A DNA stretch of 64,000 nucleotides from Crossaster papposus. Taxonomy: Eukaryota > Echinodermata > Asteroidea > Velatida > Solasteridae. A program made the position numbers and the translations under genes. This document shows positions 21,301-31,299 of this stretch, piece by piece; the first letter of the stretch is position 1, and the number at the start of each line of letters is the position of its first letter. The DNA lies in contig JBAIAA010000516.1 in NCBI GenBank assembly GCA_037893245.1, forward strand, positions 186,001-250,000, given 5' to 3'. The notes under the pieces are model-generated. The model did no database searches. It was not told the origin of the DNA and saw nothing but the letters and a program-made list of their open reading frames with translations.

Positions 21301-22968
21301 AATGGCAAAATTAGCAATTTGACCCGGGGCATGCTTTGTTAGTATTTTATTTCGATTTTCTGAAAATGGTAACGTTAACACACGCGTTTCAAATTCGCCA
21401 TAGGTTTGTGCACACAATCCCCGCCCACAAAAAAGGGCATGAAGGAAAGCATGCCCCGGGAAGGGGCTGGGTGTTAGGAGATAGAGGGGGGCCTCCAGGA
21501 ATGGCAAAATTTGCAATTTGACCCGGGGCATGCTTTGTTAGTATTTTATTTCGATTTTCTGAAAATGGTAACGTTAACACACGCGTTTCAAATTCGCCAT
21601 AGGTTTGTGCACACAATCCCCGCCCACAAATAAGGGCATGAAGGAAAGCATGCCACGGGAAGGGGCTGGGTGTTAGGAGATAGAGGGGGGCCTCCAGGAA
21701 TGGCAAAATTAGCAATTTGACCCGGGGCATGCTTTGTTAGTATTTTATTTCGATTTCAAATTCGCCATAGGTTTGTGCACACAATCCCCGCCCACAAATA
21801 CGGGCATGAAGGAAAGCATGCCCCGGGAAGGGGCTGGGTGTTAGGAGATAGAGGGGGGCCTCCAGGAATGGCAAAATTAGCAATTTGACCCGGGGCATGC
21901 TTTGTTAGTATTTTATTTCGATTTTCTGAAAATGTTAACGTTAACACACGCGTTTCAAATTCGACATAGGTTTGTGCACACAATCCCCGCCCACAAAAAA
22001 GGGCATGAAGGAAAGCATGCTCCGGGAAGGGGCTGGGTGTTAGGAGATAGAGGGGGGCCTCCAGGAATGGCAAAATTAGCAATTTGACCCGGGGAAATGC
22101 TTTGTTAGTATTGTATTTCGATTATCTGAAAATTTTAACGTTAACACACGCGTTTCAAATTCGCCATAGGTTTGTGCACACAATCCCCGCCCACAAATAA
22201 GGGCTTGAAGGAAAGCATGCCACGGGAAGGGGCTGGGTGTTAGGAGATAGAGGGGGGCCTCCAGGAATGGCAAAATTAGCAATTTGACCCGGGGCATGCT
22301 TTGTTAGTATTTTATTTCGATTTTCTGAAAATTTTAACGTTAACACAAGCGTTTCAAATTCGCCATAGGTTTGTGCACACAATCCCCGCCCACAAATACG
22401 GGCATGAAGGAAAGCATGCCCCGGGAAGGGGCTGGGTGTTAGGAGATAGAGGGGGGCCTCCAGGAATGGCAAAATTAGCAATTTGACCCGGGGCATGCTT
22501 TGTTAGTATTTTATTTCGATTTTCTGAAAATGTTAACGTTAACACACGCGTTTCAAATTCGACATAGGTTTGTGCACACAATCCCCGCCCACAAATAAGG
22601 GCATGAAGAAAAGCATGCCCCGGGAAGGGGCTGGGTGTTAGGAGATAGAGGGGGGCCTCCAGGAATGGCAAAATCAGCAATTTGACCCAAATAAGGGCAT
22701 GAAGGAAAGCATGCCCCGGGAAGGGGCTGGGTGTTAGGAGATAGAGGGGGGCCTCCAGGAATGGCAAAATTAGCAATTTGACCCGGGGCATGCTTTGTTA
22801 GTATTTTATTTCGATTTTCTGAAAATTTTAACGTTAACACACGCGTTTCAAATTCACCATAGGTTTGTGCACACAATCCCCGCCCACAAATAAGGGCATG
22901 AAGGAAAGCATGCCCCGGGAAGGGGCTGGGTGTTATGAGATGGAGGGGGGCCTCCAGGAATGGCAAAA
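18380..22968. repeat. 4,245-bp higher-order repeat interval flanking the island insertion
   Basis: The stretch ending at 18723 and the stretch ending at 22968 match over at least 330 bp at an offset of 4,245 bp. Both contain the 96-bp deleted monomer with its linked AAATCAGC change, followed by the rare TGTTATGAGATGGAGG. Differences are few: GGAAGGAGCTG versus GGAAGGGGCTG, and ATTCGCC versus ATTCACC. Sequence after 18723 continues in the right block from 29708. The locus at 18723/18724 is therefore the uninterrupted counterpart of the island's insertion point. Confidence 0.88.
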
Positions 22969-23203
22969 GCTGTTTATGTGCGTAGAGGCATAAACTTAAT
23001 TGTACAAGCCACGATACAGTCGAAATCGAAACGTACCAGTGTATCAATGTACCAAGCACGTCTGGAAATGTATACAATTGGGAAGGCGCATTCTTGGTGA
23101 CCGACATCGCTCAGCGTGTGAGCGTGCGCTGGCTAGCGGGTGAATAACCGTAAGGTAACAATCGATCACTTGCTCCAAACAATTTTCGCTGGTCGGACGC
23201 TCT
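22969..23203 (-). repeat. 235-bp element 3' terminal segment, copy 2
   Basis: This abuts the left satellite block at 22968/22969. It carries the subterminal TTGTACAA (23000-23007) followed on the plus strand by GCCACGAT, paralleling TTGTACAAAGACTCACGAT at the 5' terminus with a short gap. That is the asymmetric terminal inverted repeat. Confidence 0.92.
22972..22995 (-). terminator. 3'-terminal hairpin of copy 2
   Basis: GTTTATG (22972-22978) and CATAAAC (22989-22995) form a 7-bp stem with a 10-nt loop, 3 nt from the element end. In rolling-circle transposons such a hairpin is thought to mark the end of transfer. Read-through past it would generate tandem copies like the pair here. Confidence 0.65.
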
Positions 23204-23703
23204 AGATATTGCTCTCGTGTGAGAAGATTTGAGACAGAATTGGCTCAACGGATTGTTGGCTAAAGTCTGAATTTAGGCAGCGGTCTGATAAGTGAAATTG
23301 AGCTGGGACCAGCATCGTCGACGACAAGATTAGGGAAACAGCAACAGCAAAGCTGAAAGAGGTACCGCAAGTGAGGTGAAGTCGACGGGGAAATAAGACA
23401 ACAACACAATACACTGGTCCGGGCACGAGCACACAGACCGACACTCCGGTAACTGGGGCTCCGGCAGCCATTATTCAGCAGCGATTAGCTGACAAAGTAA
23501 TACCAGCAGCATGTATAGCATAGACCAACCCATCAGCCTGGAGGAGGTCTTATTGCATCGGGAGTCGATCGGATACTCATCATGCACCACAACTTTGCGA
23601 CCGGCGGTGTCTATTACGGGAGCTGCACTACGAGCAGAGACCGGGTGAGCCGCTAACGTTTTTTCTGTAAACACTGTGGTTGGTAATGCATAGTATCGCA
23701 AAC
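23204..23703. other. core of copy 2: unassigned sequence with a possible first-exon fragment
   Basis: Unique sequence without internal repeats. On the plus strand an ATG at 23511 opens a frame of 45 codons closed at 23648, and CCGG|GTGAGC at 23644/23645 resembles a 5' splice donor. On the minus strand two short frames (23701-23471, whose last 20 residues are hydrophobic, and 23471-23202) overlap by one base. None resembles a family I recognise. Capture of a host 5' exon is possible but weakly supported. Confidence 0.25.
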
Positions 23704-23988
23704 TTGTAACCCAAGTTCAGGCTTTGGACAAAATCTCCAACTCATTCCAGCGCCGCTATAACGGGCCCCCCCTTTCAATTTCTGCGCCCAAATGGGGCGC
23801 CCCTAACAGTAACACGGTACCAATTCAGGGCGGTACTTAGAATAGTCCAATACCATGCTGGATTCCCCGCACGGCCAGACGGGATATTTCCTTTAGAATA
23901 AACGCCCACAAAGGGGGCAGGCCAAGGAATTCCCAGATTCTGCGTACCCGTGGTTACGTAGACCCAAATTCACCTTGTAACCTAAGTT
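23704..23988. repeat. 257-bp segment between 14-bp direct repeats
   Basis: TTGTAACCCAAGTT (23704-23717) and TTGTAACCTAAGTT (23975-23988) differ at one base. The enclosed GC-rich segment (23718-23974) differs in composition from its AT-rich right flank. The repeats could be an aged target-site duplication of a small insertion such as a SINE or solo fragment. I see no A/B box, poly-A tail or terminal inverted repeat to say which. Confidence 0.35.
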
Positions 23989-25180
23989 ATTGTTTTTAGC
24001 TGTCGTTCCTTCCGGCAACGTTAGAAAAGTTTACGTCCTTATAATTTAACAAACAGATATTTCATATATAAATAAACAAACACAATAACAAGGTGGCAAT
24101 TCGAAAGGTAGAAATAAGCTGAGGTAAATACCTATTTAAAATATCACTATCACAGTATCAGTCATATTACTTTCGATAGAGCCGCTGGGTATGGGGAGTA
24201 TCTATGTAATGCGTCTTTTGATATTTAGGTTGTAAGCGTGTTTAGAAGCTGAAAGCACGTGTCAAATTTATAAACGTCAACGTTTAATTGCTAAACACTA
24301 TCCACCATCGTGCTGCCGGGCATGGTTGGCATGGAGGCACGTTTTCAAGCTATTGGCGGGAAAGTTGTGTTTACCGGCTGAACTCGGCATTGGAAGTGTA
24401 CTTCGATGGTGTGAGGCGTTGTCAGAAGGTGTAAATGGTTTATTTAAACACGTAAACTTGTAAACACGAGTGAGTGCCTTTATGTCGAAGATATAGTCCA
24501 AATTCAACACAGGGCAATAACGAGATTGAACACATTGCCAAGTGGGCCTTGCTTAAATAATAAACTCTCGCATTTGAAATAAGCCACGGCTGTTACTATT
24601 GTAAACAGATTAATAAACAAATTATAAATTTGTGTAACGCAAGTACGTGTATTGTATTATAATGTTGTGGTTGCAAATTAAATAAAACATTCCTAGGTTG
24701 CCTAACTTGAACAAACTGGCATTTGTACATTCAGACATGGAGCTTGGATTCAGGGTGCCGAATTTAGAAACAGAGCTCTTAGTCTTAAGTAAAAGGACGC
24801 ACACTGCACATTGAACTTCCGTCATACGTAGACATCGCAGATTCGTAGAAATCGCAGTTCAGGTGGCGTCAAGGACATACTATCCTTATAAGCTTATAAG
24901 CAAATTTCTGTGGGTTTCTTTATCATGTTAAAGGAGTTCTGCAAAAGTGTTTAGAAAGGTCAAAAATCGCCTCTTTGTATTCTGGAACTGGTCGCCAGGA
25001 AGTCTAAAATGTAGGGCAGCACTTACGATCATTTAGGGGATCAGTCACTCAGATAATACACGGTGGTAACATATGTTTTGTGACATACTTGTAGGATTCC
25101 AAGGATGCCCTGCGCAGTTCAGAATCAACTTGCACTGGCATTGTCATGGTCTTATGTTGTGATTTAATAAGCACGTACAT
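23989..25180. other. AT-rich core sequence of copy 2, no gene recognised
   Basis: About 1.2 kb of largely AT-rich unique sequence. It contains a 16-bp perfect palindrome CTTATAAGCTTATAAG (24885-24900) and a 17-bp tandem duplication with two differences (24827-24843 and 24844-24860, CGTAGA-ATCGCAG). Two minus-strand frames of about 70 codons (24510-24298 and 24825-24622) are no longer than chance allows and match nothing I know. Confidence 0.4.
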
Positions 25181-25183
25181 TGA

Positions 25184-25429
25184 ATATTAGCGCCAAACGC
25201 GTTGTCCACTCTAGACAGATTAGTAAAGCGTGGTTTAACGTATGTATCTTTTACACCAAATAATCACTCTCGGGTAGGTCAGCCGGGTGATGTATGCATA
25301 GTACGTAATGCTTTCACCAGGGGATCCCAAGTTGGGAAAGATGCACTGAACCCCGTGATCGTGGAACAGTTTATTCAAAATAAGCTCGATTTAGTAAACA
25401 GACACATTCGGGACGGGGAAAAGCATTGA
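25184..25429 (+). other. exon-like open stretch, unidentified
   Basis: Eighty-one stop-free codons follow a TGA at 25181-25183 and end with TGA at 25427-25429. No ATG lies near the start, so this is not a complete gene. An AG at 25189-25190 could be an acceptor. The conceptual product is mixed hydrophilic and amphipathic with a charged C-terminus (...RHIRDGEKH), more protein-like than the neighbouring frames, but I recognise no domain. It is either a captured exon or chance. Confidence 0.22.
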
Positions 25430-25897
25430 AGTATCACACGTTACTCGCGTGAAAAGTTAAGTTCTCAAGCTGAGTGTGGGAAAAGAAATACCCAATCATA
25501 TTGGCGTACAACTTATACCAACTTTGCTATTTCCTTATTGACTAGACATCAAAAAAAGAAAGAAAGTATAACCCCCTAGAAACCGAATAACAACATTTTG
25601 GCTTTAATAGCGACATGGCAAATCAGGAGCACGCATTGCTTCAATTGATGTTAATGGAATGGAAAGAAAGCATGCTAACACATGTAAATGGTTAGATTAT
25701 AAAAGGAAGTTAATTGTTAGATTAGCAAATTAAGTTATCCACTTCTTAGGCGCATATAAATTCATACGACATGGAAATCACGTAATTGAGCTGACGTACT
25801 TTAGCAATTAAAGCAAACGAGAATTTGGAACAGACACCTGTTGAATATATGTTACTAAGAACGCAAAACTGGCTCAGATCTTGTGTATTCCTTTCAG

Positions 25898-26134
25898 CTG
25901 ATGGCGGAGGACATGTCTGAGTTGACGGCGACAGTCTCGATCTATCGGGAGAACAAAGGAAAGCGCCTGCTACTCATGAAGGCAGAACTTGAGAATGCCT
26001 CAATCAGCGGTGACATGGGTGGGGAAAGGAGGAGCAACTATCTGCAGGACCTTCACTTGGTCGGCATTATCACCCGGGCTGTACTATATATCACCCGTTT
26101 ATACTATAGCTTAGAAAGCGTACGTCACAAGTAA
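25898..26134 (+). other. exon-like open stretch after a pyrimidine-rich acceptor, unidentified
   Basis: GTGTATTCCTTTCAG ending at 25897 resembles a 3' splice acceptor. An open frame of 78 codons follows, with ATGs at 25901 and 25913, ending at TAA (26132-26134). The first part encodes an acidic/polar stretch (MAEDMSELTATVSIYREN...), the end is unrelated in character (ITRAVLYITRLYY). Joining the donor at 23644 directly to this acceptor would give a stop at once, so the two are not adjacent exons of one frame. Possible captured 3' exon; no family recognised. Confidence 0.25.
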
Positions 26135-26214
26135 ATATAGATTGTATTGCAAACCGCTTAACAAGTTGCAAAATAACAATGCTGCAGCTCGCTAATGATG
26201 TTGTTATCAGTCTA

Positions 26215-26440
26215 GGGCCGCGTTCGCATTGGACTTAATATTGTCAAATGTTACGGTACGAGATTGTCAAAGTTCACGGTGTTAAATCCTCCGCTAGAAG
26301 CTTGGGCCTGTAGATCTTACTGTTGCGGAGGGTAAAAATGGACAATTTGACAAATGAATGTTACCGCCTGTCCGCATTGGATTTAATTTGGTTCTCCGTA
26401 GGTTTTACCCAAAAAAAAAAAAGTCCAATGCGAACGCGGC
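26215..26440. mobile_element. MITE with 20-bp perfect terminal inverted repeats
   Basis: GCCGCGTTCGCATTGGACTT (26217-26236) is exactly inverted at 26421-26440. The element is about 226 bp, flanked by TA on both sides (26213-26214 and 26441-26442), a possible target duplication. The left end has two extra G residues before the repeat. A degenerate internal copy of the end (CCGCATTGGATTTAAT, from 26372) and an A run next to the right end are present. It has no coding capacity, so it is non-autonomous; the superfamily cannot be fixed from the ends alone. Confidence 0.8.
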
Positions 26441-26697
26441 TATGGTTGTCACTCACAGTTCTCACCTGCGAGCACAAGTACTTTATGTGAGACGGTATTT
26501 TTCTGTCAGTTGCAGATACGGACAGACTCATTGGGATTTTGCAGGGGCTGTGAAATCCTCACAATTTGATCAGGATAATTATTGTACTTATGCATCAAGA
26601 CTGTAACCGGAGTACCCCAATCTCCGGCAATGAAACATAACGAGAAACAACAAATAATAAAAAAAAAAAAAAAAAAAAAAAATGGTTTGGGTTTTGT
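26441..26697. other. short unassigned sequence ending in a poly-A run
   Basis: Unique sequence between the MITE and the conserved 5' segment of copy 2. It ends in AATAATAAAA leading to about 25 A residues (roughly 26659-26682) and a TGGTTTGGGTTTTG stretch. The A run could be the tail of a retroposed sequence or a simple repeat. No gene is visible. Confidence 0.4.
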
Positions 26698-27305
26698 TGG
26701 GGTTGTTTTTTCCCTCTGTGCCCGGGCTTGGCCAGGTGGTCACGAAAGGTGACCAGTTACCGTGGCCAGGCCTTGTCACGGGGTGTCCCGGGACGGGCCT
26801 CGAGACCCCGGGGACCACGGGGATCTCGGCGGAGTAACCATCCGCCGACTGGGCAGCTGACCCAACCTCGCTCAGTCCCGGGAATACCCATGGTAGTTAA
26901 TCGGGAATCTGTTGTTGGCATGCGTTTATAAGCCCCTTCTGGGGGAATACCTGTTAATAGAGTATCGAAGTCAATACGTCATCTTTTGGCTGTCAAAGTT
27001 ACTCAACCTTTTCCATGTGCTTTCGCAATGGACGTTTCAGTCGACTAGTATGACAACTGACGTCATACTTCGGTACTCTATTGCCTATCCACTGTTTAAA
27101 GTGGGCAAGTTTGAAGTTTACTGATATGTTTAGAAAAAGTTAACTGCTTAACAAAAACTAAAACCAGTGATTTTGTGGATGTAAGTTGCTAATGATAATA
27201 TTATGTGATACAATTATAGTGAACGAATAATTGAGACGTCCGACTTGAAAAATAAAAGTTTGGAGGCAAGGTCAACGAACTTTTGGATCGTGAGTCTTTG
27301 TACAA
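26698..27305 (-). repeat. 608-bp element 5' terminal segment, copy 2
   Basis: This is the twin of 29100-29707. Internal structures are a perfect hairpin TGGTCAC-GAAAG-GTGACCA (26737-26755), a hairpin AGTATGAC/GTCATACT with a 7-nt loop (27047-27069) that contains the palindrome TGACGTCA (27058-27065), and a 15-bp inverted repeat with one mismatch (26956-26970 with 27068-27082). Confidence 0.92.
26956..27082. other. imperfect inverted repeat within the element 5' segment
   Basis: AATAGAGTATCGAAG (26956-26970) pairs with CTTCGGTACTCTATT (27068-27082) with one mismatch, spanning 127 bp; the same pair lies at 29358-29372 and 29470-29484. Similarity continues inward (GAAGT..ACGTCA on both arms, with gaps). 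It could be the ends of a small element absorbed into the 5' segment, or a structural motif of the element. Confidence 0.55.
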
Positions 27306-27540
27306 GCTGTTTATGTGCGTAGAGGCATAAACTTAATTGTACAAGCCACGATACAGTCGAAATCGAAACGTACCAGTGTATCAATGTACCAAGCACGTCT
27401 GGAAATGTATACAATTGGGAAGGCGCATTCTTGGTGACCGACATCGCTCAGCGTGTGAGCGTGCGCTGGCTAGCGGGTGAATAACCGTAAGGTAACAATC
27501 GATCACTTGCTCCAAACAATTTTCGCTGGTCGGACGCTCT
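27306..27540 (-). repeat. 235-bp element 3' terminal segment, copy 1
   Basis: This appears identical to 22969-23203 (offset 4,337 bp). The match stops sharply after GGTCGGACGCTCT, where the cores begin. It carries the subterminal TTGTACAA (27337-27344) and the terminal hairpin. Confidence 0.92.
27309..27332 (-). terminator. 3'-terminal hairpin of copy 1, at the tandem junction
   Basis: This has the same stem and loop as the hairpin at 22972-22995. It sits 3 nt from the head-to-tail junction, where on the minus strand CAGC is joined directly to TTGTACAAAGAC. Confidence 0.65.
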
Positions 27541-27760
27541 CCCAACCCGCCCACCCCAAGTTAGAGTTTGGCGGGGATATCCCACAATAACAAAGCGCCC
27601 GTTGAAACGGGAGCCAAAAAGAGGGTTATACAAAATAATTGTTTTCACCTAGTTTTTATTCTATGCTAGTTTGTAGGTGTATGGAATGGTTGGTGTGAGA
27701 TTAGTACAAAACCACAATCAACTGGTTTATATAATTAATTGGACATATTGGTTAGTTGAG
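27541..27760. other. core of copy 1, unassigned left part
   Basis: Begins CCCAACCCGCCCACCCC immediately after the shared 3' segment and has no similarity that I can see to the core of copy 2. It includes GGCGGGGATATCCC and a later T/G-rich stretch. No coding or structural signal is recognised. Confidence 0.4.
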
Positions 27761-28356
27761 TGACCTATGGAGGGAAGAATTTTGTTGGTTCGTTTTCGGC
27801 TTGACAAGTGGTTCCCCCTAATAGGTCCTAGTTTTATGATTTGGTTTGTTGGTTTGGGCTTGATATGGTTGGTTGGTTTGGGCTTGATATACTGGGACCT
27901 ATGGGGGGAAGAATTTTGTTGATTCATTTTAGGCTTGACAGATGATTCCCCCAATGGGTCCTAGTTTGATGATTGGTTGGTTGGTTTGGGCTTGATATGG
28001 TTGGTTGGTTTGGGCTTGATATTGGTTGGTTGGTTTGGGCTTGATATTGGTTGGTTGGTTTGGGCTTGATATTGGTTGGTTGGTTTGGGCTTGATATTGG
28101 TTGGTTGGTTTGGGCTTGATATTGGTTGGTTGGTTTGGGCTTGATATTGGTTGGTTGGTTTGGGCTTGATATACTGGGACCTATGAGGGGAAGAATTTTG
28201 TTGGTTTGTGTTAGGCTTGACAAATGATTCCCCCTAATGGTTCCTAGTTTGATGATTTGGTTGGTTGGTTTGGGCTTGATATTGGTTGGTTGGTTTGGGC
28301 TTGTTATTGGTTGGTTGGTTTGGGCTTGATATTGGTTGGTTGGTTTGGGCTTGAAA
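27761..28356. repeat. nested minisatellite in the core of copy 1
   Basis: Three large units start at about 27761, 27893 and 28173, each with GACCTATG..GGAAGAATTTTGTTG, then GGCTTGACA, GATTCCCC and CCTAGTTT. Each then carries a run of 25-bp units built on GGTTGGTTGGTTTGGGCTTG plus ATATT, with 2, 8 and 4 copies respectively. The unit length of 25 (1 modulo 3) makes all minus-strand frames open and produces a repetitive Asn/Gln/Pro/Lys ORF that is not a gene. Internal tandem repeats are a known habit of Helentron-type elements. Confidence 0.9.
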
Positions 28357-28903
28357 TAGACGGTGTGCCTTCAGACGTCACGTGTTTGCATCTGTGTTCG
28401 GGTGTGCCCGGCTGTGGTGCGCGCGCGTCGTGTTTTGCTTGGGGGGCGACGTCGCGGGTCAGATCGCCTTTGAATTAGGTGACCTCTGATGTCGTCATTT
28501 GACTAGATTGTGTGGGGCGTGATGCGTGCGCGTGTTGCCGGGCGCATTTGGGAACGGATGTGGACAGGGGGCACATGGTCTATACACTTTTAATATTATG
28601 CCAATTGCACTGATCTACGGAGTTGTAACTTGGTTGCCACTGTAAGGTGGAGCCGGATGGGAATTTCCCCTTTTCTTTTTCCTCCCAAAAGGTTTTTTTG
28701 CGGGTTTTCGCCCATCTCGTAAATCAGAATTGGTTTTAGTGTATTGGAATCTTGTAAATATCCTTGTACATCTGTAAATATTTTGTAACTTTCTGTAAAT
28801 GTTGTTGTAATTTTGTGTACTGTTATTGTATTTAATGATGTGTGCAGGGCCCCAATACAAACCAGTTTTAAACTGGCTGGGCACACCCTGGGTAAAGAAA
28901 TGA
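28357..28903 (+). mobile_element. probable 5'-truncated LINE 3' end
   Basis: The stretch interrupts the minisatellite: the repeat stops at GGGCTTGAAATAG and its flanking motif resumes as CAGTCCCCCATTTGGGTCC at 28906. The 3' half has repeated TTTTGTAA/TCTGTAAAT motifs followed by GTGCAGGGCCCCAATACAAA, an AACCAGTTTTAAACTGG hairpin, GGGCACACCCTGG and GTAAAGAAA. From memory this resembles 3' UTRs of CR1/L2-like non-LTR retrotransposons of invertebrates; I could not search it. No reverse transcriptase remains. The 5' limit is uncertain. Confidence 0.4.
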
Positions 28904-29099
28904 CACAGTCCCCCATTTGGGTCCTGGTTTGATGATTACTGGTTGGTGGGTTTAAGCTTTGGTATCCCTGCCTTTGGGGCTAGGGAGGAAAGATGAATAA
29001 TAGTACTATTAACACTTAATTTGTCTCTATACCAGGACAATTAAAGTTAACTCTATTCATCGATTTTATGACCATCTCAAGGCAACTGGTATTGTCTGG
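28904..29099. other. core of copy 1, right remnant
   Basis: A degenerate remnant of the large minisatellite unit (28906-28953, CCCCCATTTGGGTCCTGGTTTGATGATT) is followed by about 145 bp of unassigned sequence up to the conserved 5' segment. No gene. Confidence 0.5.
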
Positions 29100-29707
29100 T
29101 GGGGTTGTTTTTTCCCTCTGTGCCCGGGCTTGGCCAGGTGGTCACGAAAGGTGACCAGTTACCGTGGCCAGGCCTTGTCACGGGGTGTCCCGGGACGGGC
29201 CTCGAGACCCCGGGGACCACGGGGATCTCGGCGGAGTAACCATCCGCCGACTGGGCAGCTGACCCAACCTCGCTCAGTCCCGGGAATACCCATGGTAGTT
29301 AATCGGGAATCTGTTGTTGGCATGCGTTTATAAGCCCCTTCTGGGGGAATACCTGTTAATAGAGTATCGAAGTCAATACGTCATCTTTTGGCTGTCAAAG
29401 TTACTCAACCTTTTCCATGTGCTTTCGCAATGGACGTTTCAGTCGACTAGTATGACAACTGACGTCATACTTCGGTACTCTATTGCCTATCCACTGTTTA
29501 AAGTGGGCAAGTTTGAAGTTTACTGATATGTTTAGAAAAAGTTAACTGCTTAACAAAAACTAAAACCAGTGATTTTGTGGATGTAAGTTGCTAATGATAA
29601 TATTATGTGATACAATTATAGTGAACGAATAATTGAGACGTCCGACTTGAAAAATAAAAGTTTGGAGGCAAGGTCAACGAACTTTTGGATCGTGAGTCTT
29701 TGTACAA
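29100..29707 (-). repeat. 608-bp element 5' terminal segment, copy 1
   Basis: This matches 26698-27305 at a constant offset of 2,402 bp; I found no difference or gap. The inner edge is TGGGGTTGTTTTTT, beyond which the two copies diverge. It contains a GC-rich 170-bp part and, nearer the terminus, an AT-richer part with several inverted repeats. Small ORFs of 67 and 70 codons on the plus strand are the same in both copies but look like no known protein. Confidence 0.92.
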
Positions 29708-31299
29708 TTAGCAATTTGACCCGGGGCATGCTTTGTTAATATTTTATTTCGATTTTCTGAAAATGTTAACGTTAACACACGCGTTTCAAATTCGCCATAG
29801 ATTTGTGCACACAATCCCCGCCCACAAATAAGGGCATGAAGGAAAGCATGCCCCTGGAAGGGTCTGGGTGTTAGGAGATAGAGGGGGGCCTCCAGGAATG
29901 GCAAAATTAGCAATTTGACCCGGGGCATGCTTTGTTAGTATTTTATTTCGATTTTCTGAAAATGTTAACGTTAACACACGCGTTTCAAATTCGCCATAGG
30001 TTTGTGCACACAATCCCCGCCCACAAATAATGGCATGAAGGAAAGCATGCACCGGGAAGGGGCTGGGTGTTAGGAGATAGAGGGGGGCCTCCAGGAATGG
30101 CAAAATTAGCAATTTGACCCGGGGCATGCTTTGTTAGTATTTTATTTCGATTTTCTGAAAATGTTAACGTTAACACACGCGTTTCAAATTCGCCAGAGGT
30201 TTGTGCACACAATCCCCGCCCACAAATAAGGGCATGAAGGAAAGCATGCCCCGGGAAGGGGCTGGGTGTTAGGAGATAGAGGGGTGCCTCCAGGAATGGC
30301 AAAATTAGCAATTTGACCCGGGGCATGCTTTGTTAGTATTTTATTTCGATTTTCTGAAAATTTTAACGTTAACACACGCGTTTCAAATTCGCCATAGGTT
30401 TGTGCACACAATCCCCGCCCACAAATAAGGGCATGAAGGAAAGCATGCCCCGGGAATGGGCTGGGTGTTAGGAGATAGAGGGGTGCCTCCAGGAATGGCA
30501 AAATTAGCAATTTGACCCGGGGCATGCTTTGTTAGTATTTTATTTCGATTTTCTGAAAATGTTAACGTTAACACACGCGTTTCAAATTCGCCATAGGTTT
30601 GTGCACACAATCCCCGCCCACAAATAAGGGCATGAAGGAAAGCATGCCCCGGGAAGGGGCTGGGTGTTAGGAGATAGAGGGGGGCCTCCAGGAATGGCAA
30701 AATTAGCAATTTGACCCGGGGCATGCTTTGTTAGTATTTTATTTCGATTTTCTGAAAATGTTAACGTTAACACACGCGTTTCAAATTCGCCATAGGTTTG
30801 TGCACACAATCCCCGCCCACAAATAAGGGCATGAAGGAAAGCATGCCCCGGGAAGGGGCTGGGTGTTAGGAGATAGAGGGGTGCCTCCAGGAATGGCAAA
30901 ATTAGCAATTTGACCCGGGGCATGCTTTGTTAGTATTTTATTTCGATTTTCTGAAAATGTTAACGTTAACACACGCGTTTCAAATTCGCCATAGGTTTGT
31001 GCACACAATCCCCGCCCACAAATAAGGGCATGAAGGAAAGCATGCCCCGGGAAGGGGCTGGGTGTTAGGAGATAGAGGGGGGCCTCCAGGAATGGCAAAA
31101 TTAGCAATTTGACCCGGGGCATGCTTTGTTAGTATTTTATTTCGATTTTCTGAAAATATTAACGTTAACACACGCATTTCAAATTCGCCATAGGTTTGTG
31201 CACACAATCCCCGCCCACAAATAAGGGCATGAAGGAAAGCATGCCCCGGGAAGGGCCTGGGTGTTAGGAGATAGAGGGGGGCCTCCAGGAATGGCAAAA

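What the first reader, a model, noticed from the sequence alone, without database searches (positions are those of the whole stretch)
22969..29707. Head-to-tail pair of rolling-circle-like transposons inserted as one unit into a satellite monomer
Seen: the island has the order [3' end - core - 5' end][3' end - core - 5' end] on the plus strand, with the internal junction CAGC|TTGTACAA (minus strand) joining complete termini exactly, and its outer edges rejoining an intact satellite monomer. Known: Helitron/Helentron elements can form tandem arrays, explained by read-through of the 3' terminator or by circular intermediates. Inference: the island entered as a tandem or grew in place by a second event at the same site. 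Two copies with different cores are hard to explain by simple duplication and favour template switching or successive insertion.
Basis: partly seen in the sequence, partly recalled or inferred. Interest (0 to 1): 0.82.

Follow-up and report, generated by a model that had tools for sequence, protein, structure and literature searches.

The report
Two-part transposon with matched repeated ends
The island is one copy of a recurring two-part mobile DNA element, built in the same order in every multi-part copy examined, that enters new sites as a whole and whose repeated end sequences stay nearly identical within a copy although they differ between copies.

Summary
It is not a one-off. The host genome (1.02 Gb) holds 30 such junctions. 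A census of ends gives 21 complete multi-unit arrays. All 18 multi-unit loci typed by sequence are B (short core) then A (long core), or B-B-A; none is A-B. Solo A and solo B also exist. Insertions are precise, without target duplication, at N|TTT, shown by empty sites for two dimers and a trimer.

The unexpected part: the two 5' ends, and the two 3' ends, of one copy are nearly identical, while copies differ from each other. No variant is shared between loci at only one of the two positions. This resembles LTRs or the split direct repeats of Ngaro/PAT elements. The termini resemble Helentrons (palindromic TTGTACAA near both ends, 3' hairpin), but no autonomous partner with these ends was found. 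I read it as a non-autonomous Helentron-like composite, with ends re-copied or converted around each transposition. Transposase type and homogenising step are unproven.

The parts
22969..27305 (-). Unit A: 3' end (22969-23203), core A (23204-26697), 5' end (26698-27305)
27306..29707 (-). Unit B: 3' end (27306-27540), core B (27541-29099), 5' end (29100-29707)
26698..27540 (-). Internal 3' end|5' end junction (843 bp), equal to the joined outer ends; the cut point is 27305/27306
22972..22995 (-). 3' terminal hairpin of unit A (7-bp stem, 10-nt loop), 3 nt from the 3' terminus; the same in unit B at 27309-27332
   Evidence: fold not clearly better than shuffles
23000..23007 (.). Palindrome TTGTACAA inside the 3' end of A (same in B at 27337-27344); the same octamer is the first 8 nt of each 5' end (27298-27305, 29700-29707)
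27966..28354 (.). Central tandem repeats of core B, about 25-bp unit, about 15 copies
22950..22968 (.). Left flank: satellite monomer up to the insertion point
29708..29730 (.). Right flank: continuation of the same satellite monomer

Best explanation
The island is one insertion of a non-autonomous composite transposon of fixed layout: 5' end - core B - 3' end | 5' end - core A - 3' end. The whole 6.7 kb enters N|TTT sites in one event, without target duplication (shown by intact empty sites). By its termini it is most like a Helentron (HLE2) non-autonomous element: a Rep/helicase supplied by another element would nick at the outer 5' end, pass the internal 3' terminator and stop at the outer 3' end (inferred). 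Starting and stopping on a linear donor gives B, A or B-A but never A-B, which is what is seen. Homologous ends also allow deletion to solo A or B, duplication to B-B-A, exchange of halves between copies, and re-copying or conversion of one end pair onto the other, so that both pairs stay alike within a copy. That homogenisation is shown as a pattern; when and how it happens is inferred.
For: 30 junctions. Census, parsed: 60 places, of which 19 are complete two-unit and 2 complete three-unit arrays. All 18 multi-unit loci typed by sequence are B then A or B-B-A (17 of the 20 loci, plus the window); they include 16 of the 21 complete arrays. Of the other five, C79 starts with core B and C604's second unit starts with core A, and C395 and the two C474 arrays are typed by unit length only. 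Both outer flanks read at 15 distinct insertions (12 multi-unit, 3 solo B): positions +1 to +3 are T in 15 of 15, position -1 is A in 13 and C in 2. Empty sites: window 199/199, the B-B-A trimer L014 up to 99% over 117 of 120 bases, dimer L017 98% over 120. Solo A at C28, C279/C414 and C129 (both ends only read) and C191; solo B at L026, L027/L032, L033/L034. Ends: substitutions in both copies of two or more loci 13 (5' end) and 6 (3' end), in both copies of one locus 12 and 5, in a single copy 15 and 0, shared between loci at one position only 0 and 0; concordant cells 40 against a mean of 5.4 (maximum 33) in 500 shuffled pairings of the 5' ends. The shared deletions (40, 11 and 4 bp) are in both copies. 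Clade L010/L014/L016/L018 appears in both core trees. Helentron-like termini: against PMC4067079, PMC5148889 and PMC7492417 (passages seen).
Against: No autonomous partner with these ends: none of the 150 listed Rep hits (of 273 candidates) lies within 50 kb of a listed end, coordinates compared by eye. The hairpin is matched or beaten by 34 of 200 shuffles. The octamer is shorter than the 11-15 bp subTIRs described. Without the deep L022/L024 lineage the divergences of core A and core B are not correlated (rho 0.13, 1224 of 5000 permutations), so halves re-pair, and 'one unit inherited intact' is supported only for some clades. Rolling-circle copying alone does not predict matched ends. In L009 the A-unit 3' end differs at one site from its B units.
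Confidence: 0.52

Rival explanations
1. Non-autonomous member of a tyrosine-recombinase retrotransposon group with split direct repeats (A1-B1-A2-B2, as in Ngaro and PAT). The internal 3'|5' junction is the internal circle junction used as template to rebuild both termini in every cycle; a recombinase then joins the circle to a TT in the target. (The templating role is recalled knowledge of DIRS-type elements, not from a call.)
For: Layout A1-core-B1A2-core-B2, internal junction equal to the joined ends, no target duplication, strict order, matched repeats; definition of the repeats in PMC9210276 and PMC4157794 (passages). The genome holds many tyrosine-recombinase-like genes.
Against: No reverse transcriptase or recombinase match in the 9 ORF pieces scanned, of 75 listed. 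Of 142 listed recombinase hits only one lies inside a unit; it is antisense, has a stop, and the unit is enlarged to 22.9 kb. Ngaro has B1, A2 and B2 together at the 3' end, whereas here 3.5 kb separates A2 from B2. The Helentron-like terminal motifs are unexplained.
Confidence: 0.22
2. Helentron dimer whose ends are kept alike only by gene conversion and unequal crossing-over between direct repeats after insertion, unrelated to transposition.
For: Solo A, solo B and B-B-A products exist, as such recombination would give; in the two B-B-A loci the B units are 99.96% and 100% identical.
Against: No allele is shared between loci at only one position (0 of 19 shared substitutions, 0 of 3 shared deletions), although single-copy mutations are about as common as both-copy private ones (15 against 17). 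If conversion were slow, source copies would pass on position-specific variants. The same-flank pair L015/L025 keeps two differences between its 5' ends in each copy. These numbers are small, so this rival is not excluded.
Confidence: 0.2
3. Chance tandem: A and B are independent elements that insert next to each other, because the 3' end of one element followed by TTT is itself a valid target.
For: C|TTT at a 3' boundary fits the N|TTT target; solo A and solo B exist.
Against: 18 of 18 typed multi-unit loci are B-A or B-B-A; matched end variants within a locus; shared clades in both core trees.
Confidence: 0.04
4. Assembly artefact in a satellite array.
For: Satellite arrays are hard to assemble.
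Against: The same structure recurs on many contigs and outside satellites (8 of 16 distinct multi-unit loci show no tandem array at the edge read, though for L021 only 117 bp were read), with empty sites.
Confidence: 0.02

Closest known systems
Helentron / HINE (HLE2, Helitron2) non-autonomous elements, e.g. HINE-Mo, Cg_HINE
   Same: Palindromic short repeat at the 5' terminus and 31 nt inside the 3' terminus, hairpin between that and the 3' end, T-rich target, no target duplication, tandem repeats in core B
   Different: Octamer instead of 11-15 bp; fixed two-unit layout; matched internal and outer ends; no partner with these ends found
Ngaro / PAT split-direct-repeat retrotransposons
   Same: A1-B1-A2-B2 repeat layout, no target duplication (the latter recalled for these groups)
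   Different: No reverse transcriptase or recombinase found; 3.5 kb between A2 and B2; Helentron-like terminal motifs
Tandem Helitron insertions in Metarhizium, bat, Drosophila, rice and maize (reported or cited in PMC5148889, passages)
   Same: Head-to-tail copies
   Different: Here a heterodimer of fixed order recurs at many sites with matched ends
LTR retrotransposons (recalled)
   Same: Repeats identical within a copy, divergent between copies; solo derivatives
   Different: The two outer ends are different sequences; no target duplication; no coding genes found

Membership tests
Helentron/HINE (HLE2) | Short inverted repeat at the 5' terminus and subterminally at the 3' end | tested here: met
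   TTGTACAA at positions 1-8 and at -39 to -32; 8 bp, shorter than the 11-15 bp in PMC4067079 and PMC7492417
Helentron/HINE (HLE2) | Hairpin near the 3' terminus | tested here: inconclusive
   7-bp stem present; 34 of 200 shuffles fold as well
Helentron/HINE (HLE2) | T-rich insertion site, no target duplication | tested here: met
Helentron/HINE (HLE2) | Autonomous partner with Rep, helicase and endonuclease and the same termini | tested here: inconclusive
   150 Rep hits listed of 273 candidates; none within 50 kb of the 78 3' ends or 85 5' ends, compared by eye; termini of the Rep elements were not reached
Canonical Helitron | 5'-TC and CTRR-3' (PMC4067079, passage) | tested here: not met
   5'-TTGTAC, CAGC-3'
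Ngaro/PAT split-direct-repeat elements | A1-B1-A2-B2 repeats | tested here: met
   but A2 and B2 are 3.5 kb apart
Ngaro/PAT split-direct-repeat elements | Reverse transcriptase, RNase H and tyrosine recombinase | tested here: not met
   No Pfam match in 9 ORF pieces scanned of 75 listed; of 142 listed recombinase hits one, antisense, lies in a unit (C79). An autonomous relative elsewhere is not excluded
LTR retrotransposon | Identical outer termini and target duplication | tested here: not met
   Outer ends differ; no duplication

The most novel reading that the evidence does not exclude
A transposon whose life cycle passes through a stage with a single copy of the 3'|5' junction, which is copied to make both the internal junction and the outer termini at each insertion. 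It would be an LTR-like regeneration of ends in an element with rolling-circle-type termini, making the internal junction a functional part, with cores acting as exchangeable cassettes.
Probability: 0.25. Interest if true: 0.85.

Novelty: new variant of a known kind. Interest (0 to 1): 0.6.

Why it matters
Helitron-type transposition is often inferred from termini of single elements. Here a natural set of 21 complete arrays (16 typed by sequence, with one order), solo products, precise empty sites and matched ends constrains the mechanism: a symmetric circle with two identical junctions should give A-B as often as B-A, which is not seen, and plain strand copying would not keep the ends matched. 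It makes the question of how tandem and composite Helentron-like elements arise and persist testable by sequencing, and shows such elements entering satellites and tRNA gene arrays.

Tried and rejected
Partner search: the old C251 array has a 1264-aa open frame (DUF6589 and CXC similarities, both below Pfam's cut-offs) just upstream of its junction and looked like a partner. A second copy at C7 shares its sequence only up to 51 bp before the junction, so I read it as a separate transposon nested in that unit. Long units as possible autonomous copies: C191 (8957 bp) is a solo A carrying extra sequence; C79 begins with core B and the second unit of C604 with core A, but the slices near their far ends matched neither core. 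C223 and C356 begin with core B and C344 with core A; these and C585 were not read in full. A 27-base pattern for more distant 3' ends did not complete. A circular intermediate with two equal junctions is rejected as sole route by the strict order.

Caveats on counts: one search counted gap columns one by one; one search repeats it with substitutions only and is the one used. One search leaves out L021 (interrupted 5' ends), L023 and L025 (same flanks as L022 and L015) and the solo copies: n = 15 loci for 5' ends, 11 for 3' ends; for L009 and L014 the 3' comparison is between two B units. One search compared fixed-length slices and overstates differences; one search replaces it. The last 3' end at C604 is a two-mismatch match 13 kb from its 5' end and is weak.
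Full report
What is there. The island 22969-29707 lies in a 199-bp satellite. Read on the minus strand it is: 5' end (608 bp) - core B (1559 bp) - 3' end (235 bp) | 5' end (608 bp) - core A (3494 bp) - 3' end (235 bp). The two 5' ends and the two 3' ends are identical and the cores are unrelated. The joined flanks equal another monomer of the same array at 199 of 199 positions. Nine ORF pieces (47 to 127 aa, eight of the island and one across its left edge, of 75 listed) gave no Pfam match at E up to 1.

It recurs. The window is part of an unnamed 1.02-Gb assembly. The 21-base junction pattern gave 29 exact matches and one with one mismatch, control 0; two further two-mismatch matches are not counted. 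The 3' terminal 21-mer gave 78 matches and the 5' terminal 21-mer 85, controls 0. Parsing these two lists gives 60 places: 19 complete two-unit arrays, 2 three-unit arrays, 17 single units, the rest incomplete. Some share flanks and are taken as alleles or duplicates (L015/L025, L022/L023, L033/L034, C279/C414). L026 and L027 are solo B; L028 is partial. Of the 21 complete arrays, 16 are typed in this way, C79 and C604 in part, and C395 and two C474 arrays only by unit length. Solo A was typed from both ends at C28, C279/C414 and C129 and in full at C191. No A-B array was seen.

Insertion. At 15 distinct insertions with both flanks read, positions +1 to +3 are T in 15 of 15 and position -1 is A in 13 and C in 2. 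Joined flanks of the trimer L014 match uninterrupted copies of a roughly 106-bp tandem repeat at up to 99%, and those of dimer L017 match a place at 98% over 120 bases. So whole dimers and trimers enter precisely, with no duplication. Eight of 16 distinct multi-unit loci have a tandem array at the insertion edge: five in the 199-bp satellite, one in the 106-bp repeat, two in tandem arrays of tRNA-Leu genes. The genomic share of such arrays was not measured, so a preference is not shown.

Matched ends. Within a locus the B and A 5' ends differ at 0 to 5 sites (most in L013, which also has a deletion in one copy); the 3' ends are identical in 11 of 11 B-A pairs that lie within one fetched locus, two of them same-flank duplicates. 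For three loci whose A end was fetched later, L010 and L014 agree with their B ends and L009 differs at one site. Among 18 loci the 5' ends differ by 0.94% and the 3' ends by 1.32% on average, and lineages carry their own deletions. Substitutions only: 19 alleles are in both copies of two or more loci, 17 in both copies of one locus, 15 in one copy of one locus, and none is shared between loci at one position only. Shuffling which copies are paired gives a mean of 5.4 concordant cells (maximum 33) against 40 observed for the 5' ends, and 3.0 (maximum 13) against 18 for the 3' ends. This is the pattern of LTRs: inherited variants are in both copies, later ones in one.

Inheritance of the halves. 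Some clades appear in both core trees, notably L010/L014/L016/L018. Over 15 loci the divergences of core A and core B correlate (rho 0.62; 10 of 5000 permutations), but without the deep lineage L022/L024 they do not (rho 0.13; 1224 of 5000). Halves therefore seem to re-pair, presumably by recombination in the shared ends, and the ends are nevertheless matched in each copy.

An old copy. At C251 an array has a unit A enlarged to 17.4 kb, whose core A pieces longer than 70 bp are 81-97% identical to the window's, with further open frames of up to 247 aa, and a 3' end reading CACC. Its junction to an upstream 3' end is intact, so the two-unit layout seems older than the young copies.

Which kind of element. 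The termini fit Helentrons as described in PMC4067079, PMC5148889 and PMC7492417 (passages): octamer palindrome at the 5' terminus and 31 nt inside the 3' terminus, hairpin in between (not significant by itself), T-rich target, no duplication, tandem repeats in core B. The layout fits the split direct repeats of Ngaro and PAT (PMC9210276, PMC4157794; passages). Neither set of genes was found with these ends: 150 listed Helitron_like_N hits of 273 candidates, many in frames above 3000 aa, none within 50 kb of an end (compared by eye with 49 and 88); 142 listed phage-integrase-type hits of 840 candidates, one inside an enlarged unit at C79, antisense and with a stop. These lists are capped, so absence is weak.

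Mechanism. Copying from a linear donor, from an outer or inner 5' end to an inner or outer 3' end, yields B, A and B-A but not A-B, matching the census; bypass of a Helitron 3' end is documented experimentally in PMC4778049 (passages). A circle with two equal junctions should give both orders. The matched ends need an extra step: re-copying from one template during transposition (as recalled for split-repeat retrotransposons), or conversion between repeats. Zero position-specific shared alleles favours coupling to transposition, but with 19 substitutions and 3 deletions the upper bound (rule of three) is still about 14%, so conversion is not excluded.

Print. Searches for Helentron or Helitron with tandem, head-to-tail, concatemer, multimer, composite, or concerted evolution (listings, plus passages of the papers named) showed tandem Helitrons, but nothing I saw describes a fixed heterodimer with matched ends; only open-licence PubMed Central papers are held there.

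Noticed in passing
L036 9114-9899 and L037 3-3008 (C251), further copies listed: A multi-copy transposon-like family encoding an open frame of over 1200 aa with DUF6589 (E 1e-5) and CXC (E 6e-4) similarities, both below Pfam's cut-offs; 52 matches were listed (46 of 1736 candidates scored), most without internal stops. No paper in the library names DUF6589.
   Followed up: partly
L016, L024 (dimers), L046/L047 (solo A), L027 (solo B): Insertions in tandem arrays of tRNA-Leu genes (about 217-bp period; ARAGORN on L016 and L024). By flank similarity the solo A at C129 lies at the homologous position, about 20 bp upstream of the tRNA-Leu sequence, and L027 in the same kind of array.
   Followed up: partly
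window 1-22968 and 29708-64000: 199-bp satellite with recurrent shorter repeats (96- and 168-bp spacings) that break the array at intervals, in the left part.
   Followed up: no
G000, one search list; L052, L053: Abundant Helitron_like_N genes in open frames above 3000 aa; the stretches downstream of two of them were 99.95% identical over 3976 bp, suggesting recent activity or duplication.
   Followed up: partly
window 25859-26134 (+), L036 5807-6283 (+): An antisense open frame in core A, longer in the old copy, that could be a captured exon; no Pfam match for the window version.
   Followed up: partly
C19:625262, C164:170973, C251:511894 and 529298, C800:953356: A diverged form of the 3' end ending in CACC instead of CAGC, with short units of 1.7-1.9 kb at C19 and C164; the C164 one carries core B.
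   Followed up: partly
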